A stretch of DNA of 64,000 nt from assembly GCF_030068605.1 (NCBI RefSeq), contig NZ_JASJOU010000011.1, positions 186,001 through 250,000 of the forward strand, in the 5' to 3' direction. This DNA comes from Xanthocytophaga agilis. GTDB lineage: Bacteria; Bacteroidota; Bacteroidia; Cytophagales; 172606-1. Below the pieces are notes generated by a model. The model searched no databases, was not told the origin of the DNA, and worked only from the letters and a program-made list of their open reading frames with translations. Position numbers and translations under genes: made by a program. Below are positions 1,976 through 40,141 of this stretch, in pieces. Within the stretch, counting starts at the first letter, position 1; each line of letters begins with the position of its first letter.

Positions 1976-3244
1976 TTATTTTAGATAAATTGGAATCTGA
2001 GTCTCTGAGTAATGTAAATAATAGAACATGATAACAAACCAAGGAAAGAACATAAACTGTCCTGGATTAAAATTATTCTCAAAGAGTGGAATTAAAATCA
2101 CAGGAGGCAAAAACACATATTTAGAAGAATGTTTAAGTGCAAAGATCCAAATAGTCCGCAAGGGAAAAAAGACCATAAAGAATACAAATATCAAATATCC
2201 GCTTCCAAAAAGAAGCTCATAATAAGAGTTATGCAGATTGATTTTTAACTTTCTCGGATTATAATTGGGATTAAGTCTTAACAAAGCTTCTTTGAATGAA
2301 TAAAATCCGAATCCTGTAAGCATAGTTTCTGGATAATTACTCATAGATTCAAAACAAAGATTAGCTAATTTCTCTCGCGATTCTCCTTCCTTTAATTGTT
2401 TTTCTGTCTTATTTAATCGTTTATTTAATGCTGATTCCGGATCACCATAGAGTTGAAAAATTAGCAAGAAAACTAATAAAACGGAGAATAATTTGATGGC
2501 AAGATGTGTATTAGAGTTTCGCAATATAAAAATTAGAAATCCCAAAGAAAATGTAAGGTATCCACTCCTGGAGCCACTAATTGATAACAATATAATTGCA
2601 AGTGGAGTTAGAATACGAATAAACCAAAGATGTTTATTTGAAAGGGAAGAATCATTCCTGTAGAGGTCCAAACTTGTTAGCAAAAACATAGCACAAGCCC
2701 ATCCATAATGGTTGTTAGCAAAACCACCAACAGAATCCCCATAAATATCTTTTTCGCCTAAACTGCCTGAGAATAAAAATGCAATAACTGGAAATCCATA
2801 AACAAGATTAAATACACGAAGAATCAGTATAAGTAAATCTTCTTTATCTATATTTCTATAGAGGTAAAGAATACTATAATTGATATATATCAGGAAAGGA
2901 ATAAGGTTAAAGAATTTTTCAAAAGACGAGAAAAAATTGAAACTGAAGGGTATTACATATATATTCAGTAGAATAAAGACCCACATCTGCCAGGAGTTTC
3001 CTCCTTTAACACCAAAGATCTGCTTCCTTGTCATTGAAAACAAGTAATAAAGGGAACCTACCAACAACACAATACGCAAAGGCTTTGTAATACTATTGGA
3101 TACCATCCCTGTGAGACCTGCAAGCCAATAAGAGATTACCACTGAACTAATATTTATAACAAAAAGCTTCCAATTCCAGTCATTCTTAGGAGCCTGAAGA
3201 AGTTCTTTCTGAGGCGTTTCTATAGGTATAGTGGCTGATAACAT
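1976..3244 (-). CDS. O-antigen ligase / polymerase family membrane protein
   Basis: The 422-residue polytopic protein has about ten hydrophobic stretches and a large hydrophilic loop (about residues 255-345). That loop ends in LHNSYYELLFGSGYL with a conserved histidine near residue 338, typical of the Wzy_C/WaaL superfamily. Members polymerise or ligate lipid-linked glycans on the periplasmic face. The ATG at 3244 lies 59 bp inside the upstream glycosyltransferase gene. No other ATG precedes the first membrane segment, so the overlap is probably real and implies translational coupling. Sequence alone does not separate ligase from polymerase. Confidence 0.82.
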   Translation of the reverse strand: MLSATIPIETPQKELLQAPKNDWNWKLFVINISSVVISYWLAGLTGMVSNSITKPLRIVLLVGSLYYLFSMTRKQIFGVKGGNSWQMWVFILLNIYVIPFSFNFFSSFEKFFNLIPFLIYINYSILYLYRNIDKEDLLILILRVFNLVYGFPVIAFLFSGSLGEKDIYGDSVGGFANNHYGWACAMFLLTSLDLYRNDSSLSNKHLWFIRILTPLAIILLSISGSRSGYLTFSLGFLIFILRNSNTHLAIKLFSVLLVFLLIFQLYGDPESALNKRLNKTEKQLKEGESREKLANLCFESMSNYPETMLTGFGFYSFKEALLRLNPNYNPRKLKINLHNSYYELLFGSGYLIFVFFMVFFPLRTIWIFALKHSSKYVFLPPVILIPLFENNFNPGQFMFFPWFVIMFYYLHYSETQIPIYLK

Positions 3245-4346
3245 CTTGTAAAATGGCTAATAGTTCCTGATACATCACATATTTGGAAAACTTCTTAACA
3301 AAGCTTTCTCCATTACTCACTTTATCCTTACGCTGCTCAATAGCAGTAATACAATTCTCGATAACCTGTGATAATTCATTAGGGTTGCCCGGTGATACAA
3401 GCCAACCATTTTTTCCATGATCCAGTACTTCCGGAATACCACCAACAGCAGTACTTACAACAGGTAGGCCACATGCCAGAGCTTCTATGTTAGCAACACC
3501 TAGTGCTTCCTGCAGGGCAGGTACACAGAAGATATCACATTCATACATCAGCTGTTTGACATTGTCTGGTGATTGCTCTCCCTTCCAGTCTAGTTGCAGA
3601 TTGCTTTTTCCAATAAAATAAGATTCAATCAATGGTTTAAATCTCTCTTCTGGTCCTACAACAGTAACCAGAAATCTAAATCTGTCCAGCAAAGCTAATG
3701 CATCTGTCAGTGTTTGTAAATTTCCTCGCTTAAAATCTGCCTTAACAAATAATATACGGATTGGCAGCAAAAACGGACGATCGGCCTGAAACTTATTTTT
3801 GGATAAATCAATCGATTTATATAAACGCGTCACTTTTTGAGGATGACCATAAGCAGCAATCACCTTCTCAGTCAAGAAATCAGAGTTGGTTAGGATATGC
3901 TGATGATACTTCACGGATAACTTTTCGCACTTCCGAAATAAAAACCGTTTCAACCACATTGAGTTAGCTTTGAAATTACTCCAACCAATAATGATGTTGT
4001 TATCATCATTGATCATCCCAACGGTAGGCTCTTTGGAAACTATCGCACTCCACAGGCCAATGAACGAATTATTATATAATAACACATCATAGGCAAACTC
4101 CTTTTGTATCTTTTGTGCAGCATTGTGATAAATAAACATCCGAAAGAACTGACTCAGCAACTTCAGAAAACGAGGCAACCGAACCTCAACAGGATAGACA
4201 TTTGTATGTGGTTTTGTGATATCCTCTGTTACTATGCGTATCTCATGTTCCGGATACAATGTATTGATCTCCAGAATCAGGTTAGCAAACTTGGCAGGTC
4301 CATTAGTAACGTTTTCAAAAGAATTGGTACAAAGAAGAATCTTCAT
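3186..4346 (-). CDS. GT4-family glycosyltransferase
   Basis: A 386-residue GT-B glycosyltransferase. The N-terminal domain starts MKILLCTNSFENVTNGPAKFA, with the glycine-containing acceptor loop expected for family 4. The C-terminal nucleotide-sugar domain carries the E-x7-E element (EALGVANIEALACGLPVV) followed by GGIPEVLDHGKNGWLV. These proteins add a sugar to a growing lipid-linked glycan on the cytoplasmic side. The 3' end overlaps the ligase-like gene by 59 bp, and the next upstream glycosyltransferase ends 37 bp before it. Donor and acceptor cannot be read from the sequence. Confidence 0.88.
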   Translation of the reverse strand: MKILLCTNSFENVTNGPAKFANLILEINTLYPEHEIRIVTEDITKPHTNVYPVEVRLPRFLKLLSQFFRMFIYHNAAQKIQKEFAYDVLLYNNSFIGLWSAIVSKEPTVGMINDDNNIIIGWSNFKANSMWLKRFLFRKCEKLSVKYHQHILTNSDFLTEKVIAAYGHPQKVTRLYKSIDLSKNKFQADRPFLLPIRILFVKADFKRGNLQTLTDALALLDRFRFLVTVVGPEERFKPLIESYFIGKSNLQLDWKGEQSPDNVKQLMYECDIFCVPALQEALGVANIEALACGLPVVSTAVGGIPEVLDHGKNGWLVSPGNPNELSQVIENCITAIEQRKDKVSNGESFVKKFSKYVMYQELLAILQDVISHYTYRNASERTSSGS

Positions 4347-21578: not shown

Positions 21579-22414
21579 AGTAAAAGAACAAGGGTTAATG
21601 CTTATGCTCACAGATTGTCTGTGCTCTATTCGTTTGAACAGGCTACTGTGATACATACTAAGGTTAATAATGGTTGGAAATTTCGTTTATCTGTTCATGA
21701 ATACATAAAAGGATCTGAACAACTAGTGCAGAGGTATATCCATACAGGAAAACGAAATTGCATAGATACACATTTTTGAATAGAAATTCTGTTGAAGCAG
21801 GTTTGCAGGAAAGAAGAGGCAAAAGTATAGCTGGAGGCAGTGCCCCCAACCATAACCATATCTTAAAACACCGTATTATAGAATAATCCTATTCTATACA
21901 AATCTAGATGCCACAAACATAAACCCACAACCTTAAAAAAAGCTTAAAAACAACCTTAAAATTTCCTTAAAATTCTATTTTGACAATACAGATATTTTAC
22001 AAAAAAAAGAAATACCTCACCCAAACCTGATGATTGGGTTACTTCCCATATGCAGAACATCCAGCACATATGGTTTATAATTTTTACAAGATGTAGATTG
22101 TGCAATGCAGACATTTCTCTATTTTTGCATCTCCTTATGATGCCAACGCACAGTAAGATGCGTTTTTTACATTACTGTATAAAGTTAGAAGAAGAATGAG
22201 AGGAAATTGCAGATTTCCTGTGTACACTTTTTTCTGATTATTTATTCGTTAACGCTTAGCCTACCATTATTCAGTCACAGAATACTAAAGCAATAGTCAA
22301 TAAACAAACCATACATGGTTTATCAGCTTGTGAAATATAGAAGAAATAGAGTATAAATCTGTTTTTCGGAATTTCAGCAACTATCAACCACCATTTTTAA
22401 TCTAAATAACCCTA
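21579..22414. other. 836-bp intergenic region with leader hairpins
   Basis: No gene is supported. The right half looks like a transcribed leader of the 22415 gene. Hairpins there are 22145-22164 (aacgca/tgcgtt, then TTTT), 22201-22219 (aggaaat/atttcct, with a T-run at 22228-22233) and 22306-22321 (aaacca/tggttt). The first two resemble weak terminators. The left half (21579-22096) shows nothing beyond AT-rich sequence. Confidence 0.45.
22097..22127 (+). promoter_or_regulatory. Candidate Bacteroidota promoter for the nucleotidase operon
   Basis: An exact TAnnTTTG -7 box (tatttttg, 22120-22127) is preceded at 19 bp by attg (22097-22100), close to the TTTG -33 consensus. Transcription would start near 22134, giving a leader of about 280 nt to the gene at 22415. 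Confidence 0.42.
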
Positions 22415-27057: not shown

Positions 27058-27861
27058 ATGATCTTCACAACACAAAAAATAAACCAGGGGTACTGGAAAG
27101 TACTGATAGACAACCCTCCTGTCAACATATTTGATGCAGAGTTCTCCAATCAATTACGGGTATTACTAGATCAAATGGAAGCAGATGAAAACCTAAAAGT
27201 TGTAGTTTTTGAAAGTGCCAATCCCGATTTCTTTGTTGCTCATGTTGAACTTATTGATATTGCAGCGTTTCCTAAAGGTCCAGGTAAGACAGGACTCTCT
27301 ATTGCCTGGCCAGATCTCGCCAAACGCCTGGAACAGGCTCTCTTTGTAAGTATTGCCTCTATACGAGGCAGAGCAAGAGGGATAGGCAGCGAGTTTATAC
27401 AGGCATTCGATATTCGGTTTGCCAGTAGGGAGAAAGCTATTTTTGCACAACCTGAAATTGGTATCGGTGCTTTTCCGGGTGGGGGTGGACTGGAACGCCT
27501 GCCGTTACTCATAGGAAGAGCGAAAGCATTAGAAGTAATCATGAGTGGAGATGATTACAATGCAGAAACAGCGGCTTCGTATGGTTGGATTAACCGGGCT
27601 ATTCCTGATAATGAACTGGATGCGTTTGTAGACAATTTCGCCAAACGTGTTTCTTCCTTTGACAAGCAGGCTATTACTTCAATCAAAGCGACAATAAACC
27701 AAAGAGTCACACTTCCGCAAAACGAGCATTTGCAGGAAACACAACAACGTTTCTTTGCTTCACTGGAATGGCCAGAAAGCAGACAACGGGTGAAATCTTT
27801 GTTAGAGAAAGGACTGCAGCAATATAGTGATGTGGAGTTAAACCTTGCCAAATATCTGTAA
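27058..27861 (+). CDS. Enoyl-CoA hydratase/isomerase (crotonase) family protein
   Basis: The 267-residue protein shows the crotonase fold. The first oxyanion-hole strand is in SANPDFFVAHVELID and the second in SIRGRARGIGSEFIQAFDIRFA. Both positions that hold catalytic glutamates in hydratases are glutamate here (E133 in QPEIGIGAFPGGGG and E159 in AKALEVIMSGD). The usual 'Gg(d/n)' of the first oxyanion site is replaced by SANPDFF, so the substrate need not be a simple enoyl-CoA. The gene follows the AraC regulator. The metabolic role is unknown. Confidence 0.85.
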   Translation: MIFTTQKINQGYWKVLIDNPPVNIFDAEFSNQLRVLLDQMEADENLKVVVFESANPDFFVAHVELIDIAAFPKGPGKTGLSIAWPDLAKRLEQALFVSIASIRGRARGIGSEFIQAFDIRFASREKAIFAQPEIGIGAFPGGGGLERLPLLIGRAKALEVIMSGDDYNAETAASYGWINRAIPDNELDAFVDNFAKRVSSFDKQAITSIKATINQRVTLPQNEHLQETQQRFFASLEWPESRQRVKSLLEKGLQQYSDVELNLAKYL

Positions 27862-27916: not shown

Positions 27917-28205
27917 AAAATGACTGGAGTTACAGTCACTGTCAAAAGTGAACAGAACTCCAGTCATTCTGTAAAGTGAACAGAGATCGAATATTTCTGA
28001 AAAGCGACTGGTATTCGAATATTTTTTCAAAGTGACCATAGTTCCAGTCAAACGAGAAAGCGACCGGAACTATGGTCAAAACGAAAAGTGATTCGATTTC
28101 TGGTCACTTCTTTGTTTGATCAGTCAACAACATACGAAATACTTTTTGAGAGGATTTGACTGGAATTCGAATCATTCACTGGAAATGAACAGAATTCCAG
28201 CCATC
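27917..28205. repeat. 28-bp-periodic array of mosaic 18-bp palindromes
   Basis: Palindromic cores start at 27921, 27949, 27977, 28005, 28033, 28061 and 28089, exactly 28 bp apart. Two more lie at 28157 and 28186, and a degenerate one may lie near 28117. Each core approximates TGACTGGAATTCCAGTCA and is preceded by AAAG or a close variant. The half-sites come from a small set: TGACTGGA, TGAACAGA, TGACCATAG and (TG)ATTCGA. Cores combine them in either orientation: 28033-28050 and 28061-28078 are complementary at all but two of 18 positions, and 28089 is largely complementary to 28157. The 28-bp period excludes a coding repeat. The array fills the gap between the convergent crotonase and pirin-like genes. 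Confidence 0.85.
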
Positions 28206-28209
28206 TCTC

Positions 28210-28920
28210 TTATGCTGGGAATTCACCTGAAACTTCAAATAAGAGAAGAATAGCTCCTTCTGACAATGCTTCAAAATCTATACTTTCGGTTTCCCATAAT
28301 GCCAGAGCATCTTTGGCATGCAACAATCTGTCCTGTACTTCAAAAGCTCCGGTAATAACAAAAACATAAATGCCATTACGGTTATCTGTCAATGTATATT
28401 CTCCCTTAACACGACCATCGTATTTGCCAATATAGCACAGATAGGGTTTGGTGGTGGCAGTAATCAATGGCAACAACTGATTTATTTCATCTAGGTTAAA
28501 GGTGATTTGCTCTGTTGGATCTGCTATATCTGTTGTCCTCCTAGTCAACCACATGTGCAGACAGATCACAGTTTCATCTTTCTCAAATGGATTGATAATC
28601 CGATAACTTGTTCCTTCTGATAACGAAGTTACATAGATTTGTCCCGCAGAAATGAAGTTTTCCGTACCCTTACTGTCTTTGTATTCGATCAACCCTGCCA
28701 ATGGCACAAGTACTACCTCTACTGATTGAGGCACTGTTAGCTCAATACTCTTTTCTGCAGAAAGAATTTCTTCATTCCATAACTGAAGCACACCAAAAGG
28801 TTTCCGGTGTTCATTTTGATATTCACCAAAATTGAAGGTAACATAACTTTTCTGGCCTTCTGAACTCAGGAAGCCCCGTTGTTCGGCCAGATGGATCACG
28901 GCCTTATTTTGTACAATCAT
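28210..28920 (-). CDS. Pirin-like bicupin lacking the metal-binding histidines
   Basis: The start at 28920 (MIVQNKAVIHLAEQRGFLSS) is the family-like start; an ORF extension to 29019 is rejected. The 236-residue protein has the pirin/YhhW layout: GFLSS, FGVLQLWNEEIL, then the first cupin with VEVVLVPLAGLIEYKDSKG and GQIYVTSLSEGTSYRIINPF. In metal-binding pirins the matching segment reads HPHxxxE...H...E. Here the histidines are replaced (VPQSVEVV), so quercetinase-type metal chemistry is unlikely. A second cupin follows (about 135-230). Possible non-catalytic regulator. Confidence 0.72.
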   Translation of the reverse strand: MIVQNKAVIHLAEQRGFLSSEGQKSYVTFNFGEYQNEHRKPFGVLQLWNEEILSAEKSIELTVPQSVEVVLVPLAGLIEYKDSKGTENFISAGQIYVTSLSEGTSYRIINPFEKDETVICLHMWLTRRTTDIADPTEQITFNLDEINQLLPLITATTKPYLCYIGKYDGRVKGEYTLTDNRNGIYVFVITGAFEVQDRLLHAKDALALWETESIDFEALSEGAILLLFEVSGEFPA

Positions 28921-29086
28921 GTTGTATGTAGTTGGAGTGCAAACAATAGAAGAATCTATCTGTGTGGTGCTTTTATAAGCAAACGAATCTTTTACAAAAC
29001 GCATTGCCCTACTAAACAATAACTCTTGTTACAGTTGATGCTTTCAGCAAAAATACATGAATAATTGGGGAAAGATAGAAAAAACA

Positions 29087-39816: not shown

Positions 39817-40141
39817 ACTTACTCAAGTGACAGAAGTAAAAAAAAGTAAAGAAAAAGTAAAGATCTGGGAAGAAAAAACAGGGACTCTGTAAGCTTTTGT
39901 CAGTAAAATCAACGAGTGAAAGATACCAGAAAGTAATGTATAAAGTTGTACAAATACAGCTATACAAATTTAACTCTATAGGCAAAGCCTTCTTCCACAA
40001 TAGGCCTGCGAAGTATAATTTCAGATATCAGAAAGAGTTAACCACTATATAAAACAATGAAAACAAAAGCCAGTAAACTATCTGATTTATATAATCAACA
40101 TCCTGTTATAGTTATAAAAGCTATACTAGCTATGTATACTA

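What the first reader, a model, noticed from the sequence alone, without database searches (positions are those of the whole stretch)
27917..28205. Mosaic palindrome array with an exact 28-bp period
Seven consecutive cores start exactly 28 bp apart (27921 to 28089), and two more follow at 28157 and 28186. Each is a degenerate version of the perfect 18-bp palindrome TGACTGGAATTCCAGTCA behind an AAAG-like linker. The halves come from a small set (TGACTGGA, TGAACAGA, TGACCATAG, TGATTCGA) and are combined freely, so adjacent cores such as 28033 and 28061 are complementary. That is unlike a decayed microsatellite, REP/BIME elements or CRISPR. It could be a protein-binding array on one DNA face pattern, a mobile palindrome family that recombines half-sites, or a structured RNA in the convergent 3' ends.
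Basis: partly seen in the sequence, partly recalled or inferred. Interest (0 to 1): 0.78.

Follow-up and report, generated by a model that had tools for sequence, protein, structure and literature searches.

The report
Genome-wide 28-bp mosaic half-site arrays
Two related gliding bacteria each carry scores of short DNA arrays between genes, built from paired 9-letter half-sites in a rigid 28-base rhythm, which look like docking strips for an unidentified DNA-binding protein and fit none of the repeat families we could test.

Summary
The window array (27921-28203) is one of 52 clustered places in its genome that match it or a model of it; on reading, 51 hold arrays. Its ortholog in Xanthocytophaga flavus is 97% identical. 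A second family with other half-sites (TGCGGTGAA, TGCGCATAA, TGATCGGAA) keeps the 28-bp period and the 67-bp gap. Together with isolated cores they mark 107 places, not all read. Pattern scans of 291 order and 395 phylum genomes hit only these two genomes. Between orthologs the core ends are nearly frozen (A3/T16: 1 change in 228), larger length changes are whole 28-bp units, half-sites swap as blocks, and one place carries family 1 in one species and family 2 in the other. Halves within a core are less alike than chance. RNA-fold tests show no strand or order preference; no Y1 transposase was found. I read them as double-stranded DNA platforms for an unidentified dimeric protein, BIME-like in placement but not BIMEs. 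Main rival: a static repeat without host function.

The parts
27921..27938 (.). core 1, TGACTGGAG|TTACAGTCA
27949..27966 (.). core 2, TGAACAGAA|CTCCAGTCA
27977..27994 (.). core 3, TGAACAGAG|ATCGAATAT
28005..28022 (.). core 4, CGACTGGTA|TTCGAATAT
28033..28050 (.). core 5, TGACCATAG|TTCCAGTCA; complementary to core 6 at 16 of 18 positions; its central G is C in the X. flavus ortholog
28061..28078 (.). core 6, CGACCGGAA|CTATGGTCA; its central C is G in the X. flavus ortholog (matching change to core 5)
28089..28106 (.). core 7, TGATTCGAT|TTCTGGTCA
28117..28134 (.). degenerate core, TGATCAGTC|AACAACATA, exactly 28 bp after core 7; same place in the layout as TGAACAGTT|GCCCAATCA of array L052; below the matrix cut-off
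   Evidence: read; homologous position in L052, L053 and L064; inference
28135..28156 (.). long linker (22 bp; 21 bp in most paralogs that have it): the extra ~11 bp of the layout
28157..28174 (.). core 8, TGACTGGAA|TTCGAATCA
28186..28203 (.). core 9, TGAACAGAA|TTCCAGCCA (11-bp linker before it, as at the same place of paralogs)
27058..27861 (+). flanking gene, enoyl-CoA hydratase/isomerase (PF00378); ends 59 bp before the array
28210..29019 (-). flanking convergent gene, pirin/quercetinase-type cupin (PF17954); its stop lies 6 bp after the array

Best explanation
Each array is a double-stranded DNA platform for a dimeric DNA-binding protein, or a small set of related proteins, that reads 9-bp half-sites of the form TG(A/C)-N5-A in inverted pairs. 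Cores sit every 28 bp, with one recurring extra step of about 11 bp (about one helical turn), so bound dimers would stack in a fixed helical order. The arrays sit beyond gene ends and rarely between divergent genes, where they would act like BIMEs or insulators: organising or separating neighbouring transcription units or chromosome segments. They descend from a shared layout, grow and shrink by whole units, and swap half-sites in blocks; two families use different half-site sets on the same track. SHOWN: genome-wide family, shared layout, constraint on core ends, spacing constraint, block exchange, gene-end placement, no RNA-fold signal. INFERRED: that a protein binds, that it is dimeric, and the insulating or organising role.
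For: 52 clustered places of the window's family, 51 with arrays on reading; 107 places in all. In 114 closely matched ortholog units, core positions 3 and 16 changed in 1 of 228, the outer TGA/TCA in 15 of 684, the inner positions in 66 of 1368, the 10 bases on either side in 132 of 2280 (a linker between two kept units is counted twice there). Gaps: 17 openings in 4804 array bases, 10 of which are 28-bp gaps or pieces that I take to add up to 28, against 168 in 25454 intergenic bases. Spacing in family 2, where the final scan did not demand 28 bp: of 235 spacings 131 are 0 mod 28, 63 are +1, 36 are +9 to +11, 5 are others. The 67-bp gap occurs in both families. Fold energy shows no strand preference (27 of 62 arrays, p=0.40) and no dependence on unit order (43 arrays, mean z 0.12 and -0.09). 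Context: convergent/tandem/divergent 42/58/8 of 108 arrays against 57/223/85 of 365 background pairs. At one orthologous place G000 has a family-1 array (L073) and X. flavus a family-2 array (L129).
Against: No binding protein was found. Whole cores change about as fast as other intergenic DNA (0.0855 vs 0.0760 per site; linkers 0.1175; four-fold sites 0.143), so selection is clear only at the core ends, and conversion between copies could mimic it. One search kept only units at least 70/84 identical, and also counts linkers twice. One-base indels do occur in arrays (8 openings in 4804 bases). No gene family recurs beside the 40 family-1 loci tested. At L196 the array is absent in X. flavus. 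Cores 5 and 6 of the window array show a matching change that would also fit base pairing, and shuffling right halves cost some fold stability (mean z -0.69, p=0.006). Gene context rests on simple ORF calls with differing length cut-offs, and orthologs are counted in both species.
Confidence: 0.45

Rival explanations
1. A dispersed repeat without host function: copies were spread long ago by an element now lost, and their look-alike cores are kept similar by unit duplication and short conversion between copies (for example template switching at inverted repeats).
For: Copies share a layout; unit gain and loss and half-site block exchange are visible; overall substitution rate like other intergenic DNA; placement avoids genes and divergent gaps, as tolerated insertions would; some arrays coincide with rearrangement breakpoints; found in two genomes only.
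Against: Core ends A3/T16 nearly frozen while linkers change; spacing kept in register; 32 of 51 family-1 places keep a family-1 array at the same flanks in both species; half-site pairing not random.
Confidence: 0.33
2. A structured RNA or hairpin element acting in the 3' ends of transcripts (terminator, mRNA stabiliser).
For: Eight arrays folded strongly on both strands; gene-end placement; matching G/C change in cores 5 and 6 between orthologs; X. flavus has a terminator-like hairpin where L196 has an array; small effect of shuffling right halves.
Against: No strand preference of energy (27 of 62) or of gene orientation (11 same strand, 16 opposite); unit order can be shuffled without loss of stability; cores avoid self-complementarity (z -4.7 and -4.9); no Rfam match in the window at gathering score.
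Confidence: 0.1
3. A REP/BIME family moved by a tyrosine (Y1) transposase.
For: Palindrome-like units in mosaic clusters, more than 100 places, between convergent and tandem genes, as described for REPs and BIMEs (PMC3733652, PMC2817692: passages seen).
Against: No Y1_Tnp (PF01797) match in the genome while 5 of 14 control genomes rang; no GTAG or CGTC end tag seen on reading the cores; perfect palindromes avoided rather than preserved.
Confidence: 0.04
4. A site-specific recombination system: the arrays are recombinase sites and the observed rearrangements are its work.
For: A ~150-kb inversion between the two species has both breakpoints at arrays (L192 and L068), and the flanks of L077 and L191 are exchanged likewise.
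Against: The X. flavus junctions of the inversion carry no arrays; homologous recombination or breakage at repeats would do as well; no gene family recurs beside arrays (those genes were not annotated one by one).
Confidence: 0.05

Closest known systems
REP / BIME (bacterial interspersed mosaic elements)
   Same: Intergenic, more than 100 places, mosaic clusters of inverted-repeat units at gene ends, few in divergent gaps.
   Different: No Y1 transposase found in the genome, no GTAG/CGTC tag, two-half-site cores that avoid perfect palindromy, rigid 28-bp register with one recurring extra turn, shared whole-array layout.
Dispersed chromosomal binding sites of nucleoid proteins (SlmA, Noc, MatP, ParB; recalled, no call)
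   Same: Short inverted-repeat sites repeated at many loci of one chromosome.
   Different: Those are usually single sites with one consensus; here most arrays have 4-14 cores with many half-site types, and no known binder.
Plasmid iterons and partition-site arrays (recalled, no call)
   Same: Phased repeats of protein sites in one array.
   Different: Iterons are direct repeats at one origin or centromere; these are mosaic inverted half-sites at many chromosomal places.
BOX elements of Streptococcus pneumoniae (recalled; PMC3049150 seen only in a search listing)
   Same: Modular dispersed intergenic repeats.
   Different: No comparison of sequence was run; architecture differs as recalled.

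Membership tests
REP/BIME | high-copy intergenic palindromic units in mosaic clusters | tested here: met
   107 places in G000; placement
REP/BIME | associated Y1 (RAYT) transposase | tested here: not met
   PF01797: 0 matches in the own genome at E<=0.001, 13 of 13 candidates scored
REP/BIME | GTAG or CGTC tag at one end of the unit | tested here: not met
   by reading: cores mostly begin TGA or TGC (some ATA, CGA, TAA) and end in the mirror image; tag definition from passages of PMC3733652
REP/BIME | palindromic features preserved by complementary changes | tested here: not met
   left and right halves less alike than shuffled; statement on REPs from a passage of PMC2817692
REP/BIME | binding of IHF or gyrase | not testable with these tools
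   needs biochemistry
CRISPR array | near-identical repeats with unique spacers | tested here: not met
   by reading: cores vary, linkers are mostly 10 bp and A/T-rich
Structured RNA family in Rfam | covariance-model match | tested here: not met
   0 matches in the window at gathering score; no lower threshold was tried
Structured RNA (new) | strand-specific fold selected beyond unit content | tested here: not met
   (unit order); right-half shuffling gave a small effect
Mobile element (MITE-like) | clean insertion with target-site duplication or filled/empty pairs | tested here: inconclusive
   one presence/absence case, L196 vs L221, but the whole interval differs and no duplication is visible
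Phased protein-binding array | spacing held in helical register | tested here: met
   230 of 235 family-2 spacings are 28n, 28n+1 or 28n+9 to +11
Phased protein-binding array | a specific bound protein | not testable with these tools
   no candidate shown

The most novel reading that the evidence does not exclude
A genus-specific, chromosome-wide code of paired half-sites: a set of related DNA-binding subunits forms defined hetero-pairs on cores (some pairings are common, while self-pairs of several types and other pairings are absent), so that each array spells an ordered string of protein pairs along a fixed helical track and marks or insulates its chromosomal place. The place and the track matter more than the letters: the half-site set differs between two families on one layout, and at one orthologous place the two species carry different families (L073 and L129).
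Probability: 0.15. Interest if true: 0.92.

Novelty: new variant of a known kind. Interest (0 to 1): 0.72.

Why it matters
If a protein reads these arrays, two cultured Cytophagales hold a dense, combinatorial, helically phased system of chromosomal sites, a model for how large bacterial genomes are punctuated where no Y1-driven BIMEs were found. Even if neutral, the family shows half-site block exchange and anti-palindromic mosaicism in a repeat that stays in place, and some of its arrays coincide with rearrangement breakpoints between species. Two sequenced species with dozens of orthologous arrays make selection and exchange directly measurable.

Tried and rejected
Structured RNA: strong folds on both strands of eight arrays and a matching change in cores 5 and 6 between orthologs looked promising, but strand and unit-order tests were negative. 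RAYT/REP: no Y1 transposase match. Phage or plasmid origin: no blastn match of the window array in 50,697 phage or 72,556 plasmid records; no viral-contig match to one 22-base pattern. Constant neighbour gene: none in the 40 family-1 loci of G000; the clusters found lie at varied distances (18 to 3516 bp in the rows shown) and their likely functions were judged by eye only. An XRE/CI-like gene abuts arrays at L052, L055 and L058, but inside paralogous multi-kb blocks, so I count it as one event. Recent mobility: no clean insertion found. Purifying selection over whole cores: not seen.

Tests of single places in X. flavus. One search used flanks of 6 of the 10 loci printed (the pasted query came out 40 bases longer than meant): L072 intact; L062 both flanks present but the array reduced to 2 cores; L068 and L077 flanks apart; L065 one flank only; L054 none. 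One search used the 8 loci: L184, L204 and L206 continuous (L204 with a shorter array); L196 without array; L191 and L192 flanks apart; L186 on two contig ends; L205 only weak matches.

Rows dropped or biased. L049/L121 failed to align; L060/L091 and L081/L127 failed, whose output was also cut. L073/L129 was left out because L129 holds no family-1 array; one search shows a family-2 array there. One search kept 114 units that passed a 70/84 filter; one search used 64/84 (137 units, 274 halves). Arrays with fewer than 3 cores were left out, fewer than 4, fewer than 5; 7 arrays of ambiguous orientation were left out. The family-1 spacing table is biased, because cores were kept only if a neighbour lay about 28 bp away; the family-2 matrix was first trained on 28-bp pairs, but its final scan did not demand them. 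Halves with 3 or more changes: 7 of 274 against 3.5 expected by Poisson, but linkers show a similar excess (14 against 5.5), so the argument for block exchange rests on both states being common half-types in most of the 7, not on the count. The counts come from capped listings (lower bounds) and include places with a single matching core; at 2 mismatches the family-2 unit also gives 1 to 3 hits in array-free relatives, so a few may be chance.

Full report
WHAT WAS CHECKED. The window array is as described: seven 18-bp cores at steps of exactly 28 bp from 27921 to 28089, then cores at 28157 and 28186. By reading, a degenerate core sits in register at 28117-28134, so the 68-bp gap is 28 + 40; its counterpart is visible in arrays L052, L053 and L064. 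The array begins 59 bp after an enoyl-CoA hydratase gene and ends 6 bp before the stop of a convergent pirin/cupin gene. A family weight matrix gives 466 chained cores over 52 stretches and none in one shuffled set.

GENOME-WIDE FAMILY. The window is G000:C11:186001-250000 of a 9.77-Mb, 66-contig genome. The window array as query matched 40 places (40 of 72 candidates scored). A 74-column sequence model added 12 more among its listed rows (150 of 4433 candidates scored). Of these 52, 51 hold at least two chained family-1 cores on reading; L170 does not. The same-genus genome G001 has matches in like number (166 against 168 for the model); its contig lengths equal those of Xanthocytophaga flavus YF14B1 records. 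The genus has two listed species, so G000 is probably a Xanthocytophaga too, which I could not name. The X. flavus ortholog of the window array is 97% identical.

A SECOND FAMILY ON THE SAME TRACK. A search for near-perfect consensus cores (at most 1 mismatch) gave 90 sites in G000, 90 in G001, and 2, 2, 0, 0 in four same-family genomes, with 0 for the reversed control. I read 20 of these places; 18 of the 20 match arrays with other half-sites: TGCGGTGAA/TGCCGTGAG, TGCGCATAA and TGATCGGAA. They keep the 28-bp period and the 67-bp gap. One such array as query matched in 19 of 19 scored regions in each of G000 and G001 (112 and 122 candidates) and in 0 of 37 other relatives. A typical family-2 unit (up to 2 mismatches) occurs 119 times in G000 and 117 in G001, against 1, 1, 1 and 3 in four relatives, where the reversed control also gave 0, 0, 1 and 1. 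Clustering the printed coordinates gives 52 family-1 places, 56 places with that unit, and 107 in all for G000, single cores included. X. flavus stretches L150 and L151 contain a third half-site set (AACCTG/CAGGTT) beside units of the other two.

TAXONOMIC RANGE. A degenerate two-unit pattern hit only G000 (34 sites) and G001 (39 sites) of 291 genomes of the order. A looser three-unit pattern hit only G000 of 395 phylum genomes, a draw without G001. The first query gave one weak match in G046 among 59 genomes, and the model one weak match in G009 among 11; neither was followed. A third same-genus genome, G002 (72% complete), had none. A 22-base pattern in the genome collection gave 10 stretches, 9 in X. 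flavus and one in Thermoactinomyces daqus, not followed. Viral contigs, phages and plasmids gave none.

HOW THE ARRAYS EVOLVE. For 34 of 51 family-1 places both flanks lie together in an X. flavus stretch that I had fetched; 32 of these have family-1 cores there, often with the same interval length. L052, L055 and L058 all map to one X. flavus place because they lie in paralogous blocks. The other 17 have no such match among fetched stretches, which do not cover all X. flavus arrays. Nine family-2 places pair clearly by flank, and L203 on a short right flank. So arrays mostly stay in place. Larger length differences between orthologs are 28 bp or multiples (for example L051/L097, L079/L115, L080/L111); 1-bp indels also occur. 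Half-sites change as blocks: TGACCATAC against TGAACAGAA in L050/L114 and in L056/L093, TGACTGGAA against TGAACAGAA in L059/L088; 7 of 274 halves differ at 3 or more positions, and in most of these both states are common half-types. At one place the families differ: L073 (G000) holds six family-1 cores, and the matching X. flavus interval in L129 holds family-2 units (TGCGCATA, TCACGGCA, TGATCGGAA) and no family-1 cores by the matrix, although two near-consensus cores are readable in it.

CONSTRAINT. In 114 closely matched ortholog units, positions 3 and 16 changed once in 228, outer trinucleotides 15 in 684, inner positions 66 in 1368, and the ten bases on either side 132 in 2280, a count in which shared linkers enter twice. 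Over all aligned pairs, cores (0.0855) do not change less than other intergenic DNA (0.0760), but less than linkers (0.1175) and four-fold sites (0.143). So constraint is clear at core ends and in spacing, not over whole cores.

PAIRING RULES AND PALINDROMES. The left and right halves of cores are less alike than after shuffling: z -4.7 for 319 cores of G000, -4.9 for 277 of G001, -3.1 for 273 family-2 cores. Perfect self-pairs are rare (2 of 319 and 4 of 277). In the G000 table, type D (TTCGA/TCCGA) pairs with B or C in 56 cores, with G or F in 13, with untyped halves in 12, with A in 2, with E or D in none. In family 2, H and I pair with each other in 56 of 273 cores and never with themselves; many halves stay untyped. 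Shared ancestry of cores inflates the z values. The absences could reflect heteromeric binding, descent, or instability of perfect palindromes.

RNA OR DNA. Eight arrays fold strongly on either strand, but over 62 arrays energy shows no strand preference (27 lower, p=0.40), gene orientation shows none (11 same, 16 opposite), and shuffling unit order within 43 arrays leaves stability unchanged. Shuffling right halves costs a little (mean z -0.69, p=0.006). Together with avoidance of self-complementary cores this favours a double-stranded DNA feature. In family 2, 230 of 235 spacings are 28n, 28n+1 or 28n+9 to +11; three 28-bp units make 84 bp, eight turns at 10.5 bp per turn, and 11 bp is about one turn (arithmetic, with recalled helix pitch). 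Many of the +11 steps may descend from one event.

PLACEMENT AND REARRANGEMENT. By simple ORF calls, 108 arrays lie in 42 convergent, 58 tandem and 8 divergent gaps, against 57, 223 and 85 background pairs. Some arrays sit at breakpoints between the species. A ~150-kb inversion (G000 C5:276k and 426k against G001 C55:315k and 464k) has both breakpoints at arrays L192 and L068, but the X. flavus junctions hold no arrays. The flanks of L077 and L191 are exchanged in G001 C61. The flanks of L064 lie beside two different X. flavus arrays, one in L089 and one in L095, with about 0.9 kb unmatched on the left. At L196 the array is missing in X. flavus, where a terminator-like hairpin stands instead, without a clean insertion boundary.

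COMPARISON WITH KNOWN KINDS. Placement, copy number and mosaicism resemble REP/BIME elements (passages of PMC3733652 and PMC2817692). Membership fails: no Y1 transposase match, no GTAG/CGTC tag on reading, and palindromy avoided. Works-like and member-of therefore part ways: BIME-like in placement, not a BIME. Five searches of the paper library listed no title or abstract describing such arrays; 'Xanthocytophaga' occurs in two papers, seen only in the listing.

VERDICT. A real, genus-restricted (as far as searched) family of mosaic half-site arrays on a fixed 28-bp track, not described in what those paper searches listed. Best reading: a phased protein-binding platform at gene ends (0.45). Main rival: a static, formerly dispersed repeat kept alike by conversion (0.33).

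Noticed in passing
L051 2819-2978; L052 5963-6119; L057 3727-3844; L066 3762-3891; L067 3690-3839: Another dispersed repeat of about 115-160 bp (75-86% identical in the pairs listed) lies near several arrays; by eye it contains CTTTCAGGAGGACAA or close variants.
   Followed up: no
L052, L055, L058 (G000) and L096, L098 (G001), array ends: A small XRE/CI-like regulator gene starts just beyond the array end, inside paralogous multi-kb blocks; three neighbouring proteins searched had no Pfam match. In L096 and L098 the reading frame looks shifted in the ORF list.
   Followed up: partly
L150 about 2880-3030; L151 about 3340-3570 (X. flavus): A third half-site set, AACCTG/CAGGTT, beside units of the first two families.
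   Followed up: no
L225 and L226 (X. flavus contigs C24 and C25): Two contigs end close to the two sides of the L186 array place, so arrays may break short-read assemblies.
   Followed up: no
L106 135-156 (Thermoactinomyces daqus): Single distant match of the 22-base array pattern; likely chance.
   Followed up: no
window 21927-21974 and 39834-39863: Short tandem repeats with an 11-bp period.
   Followed up: no
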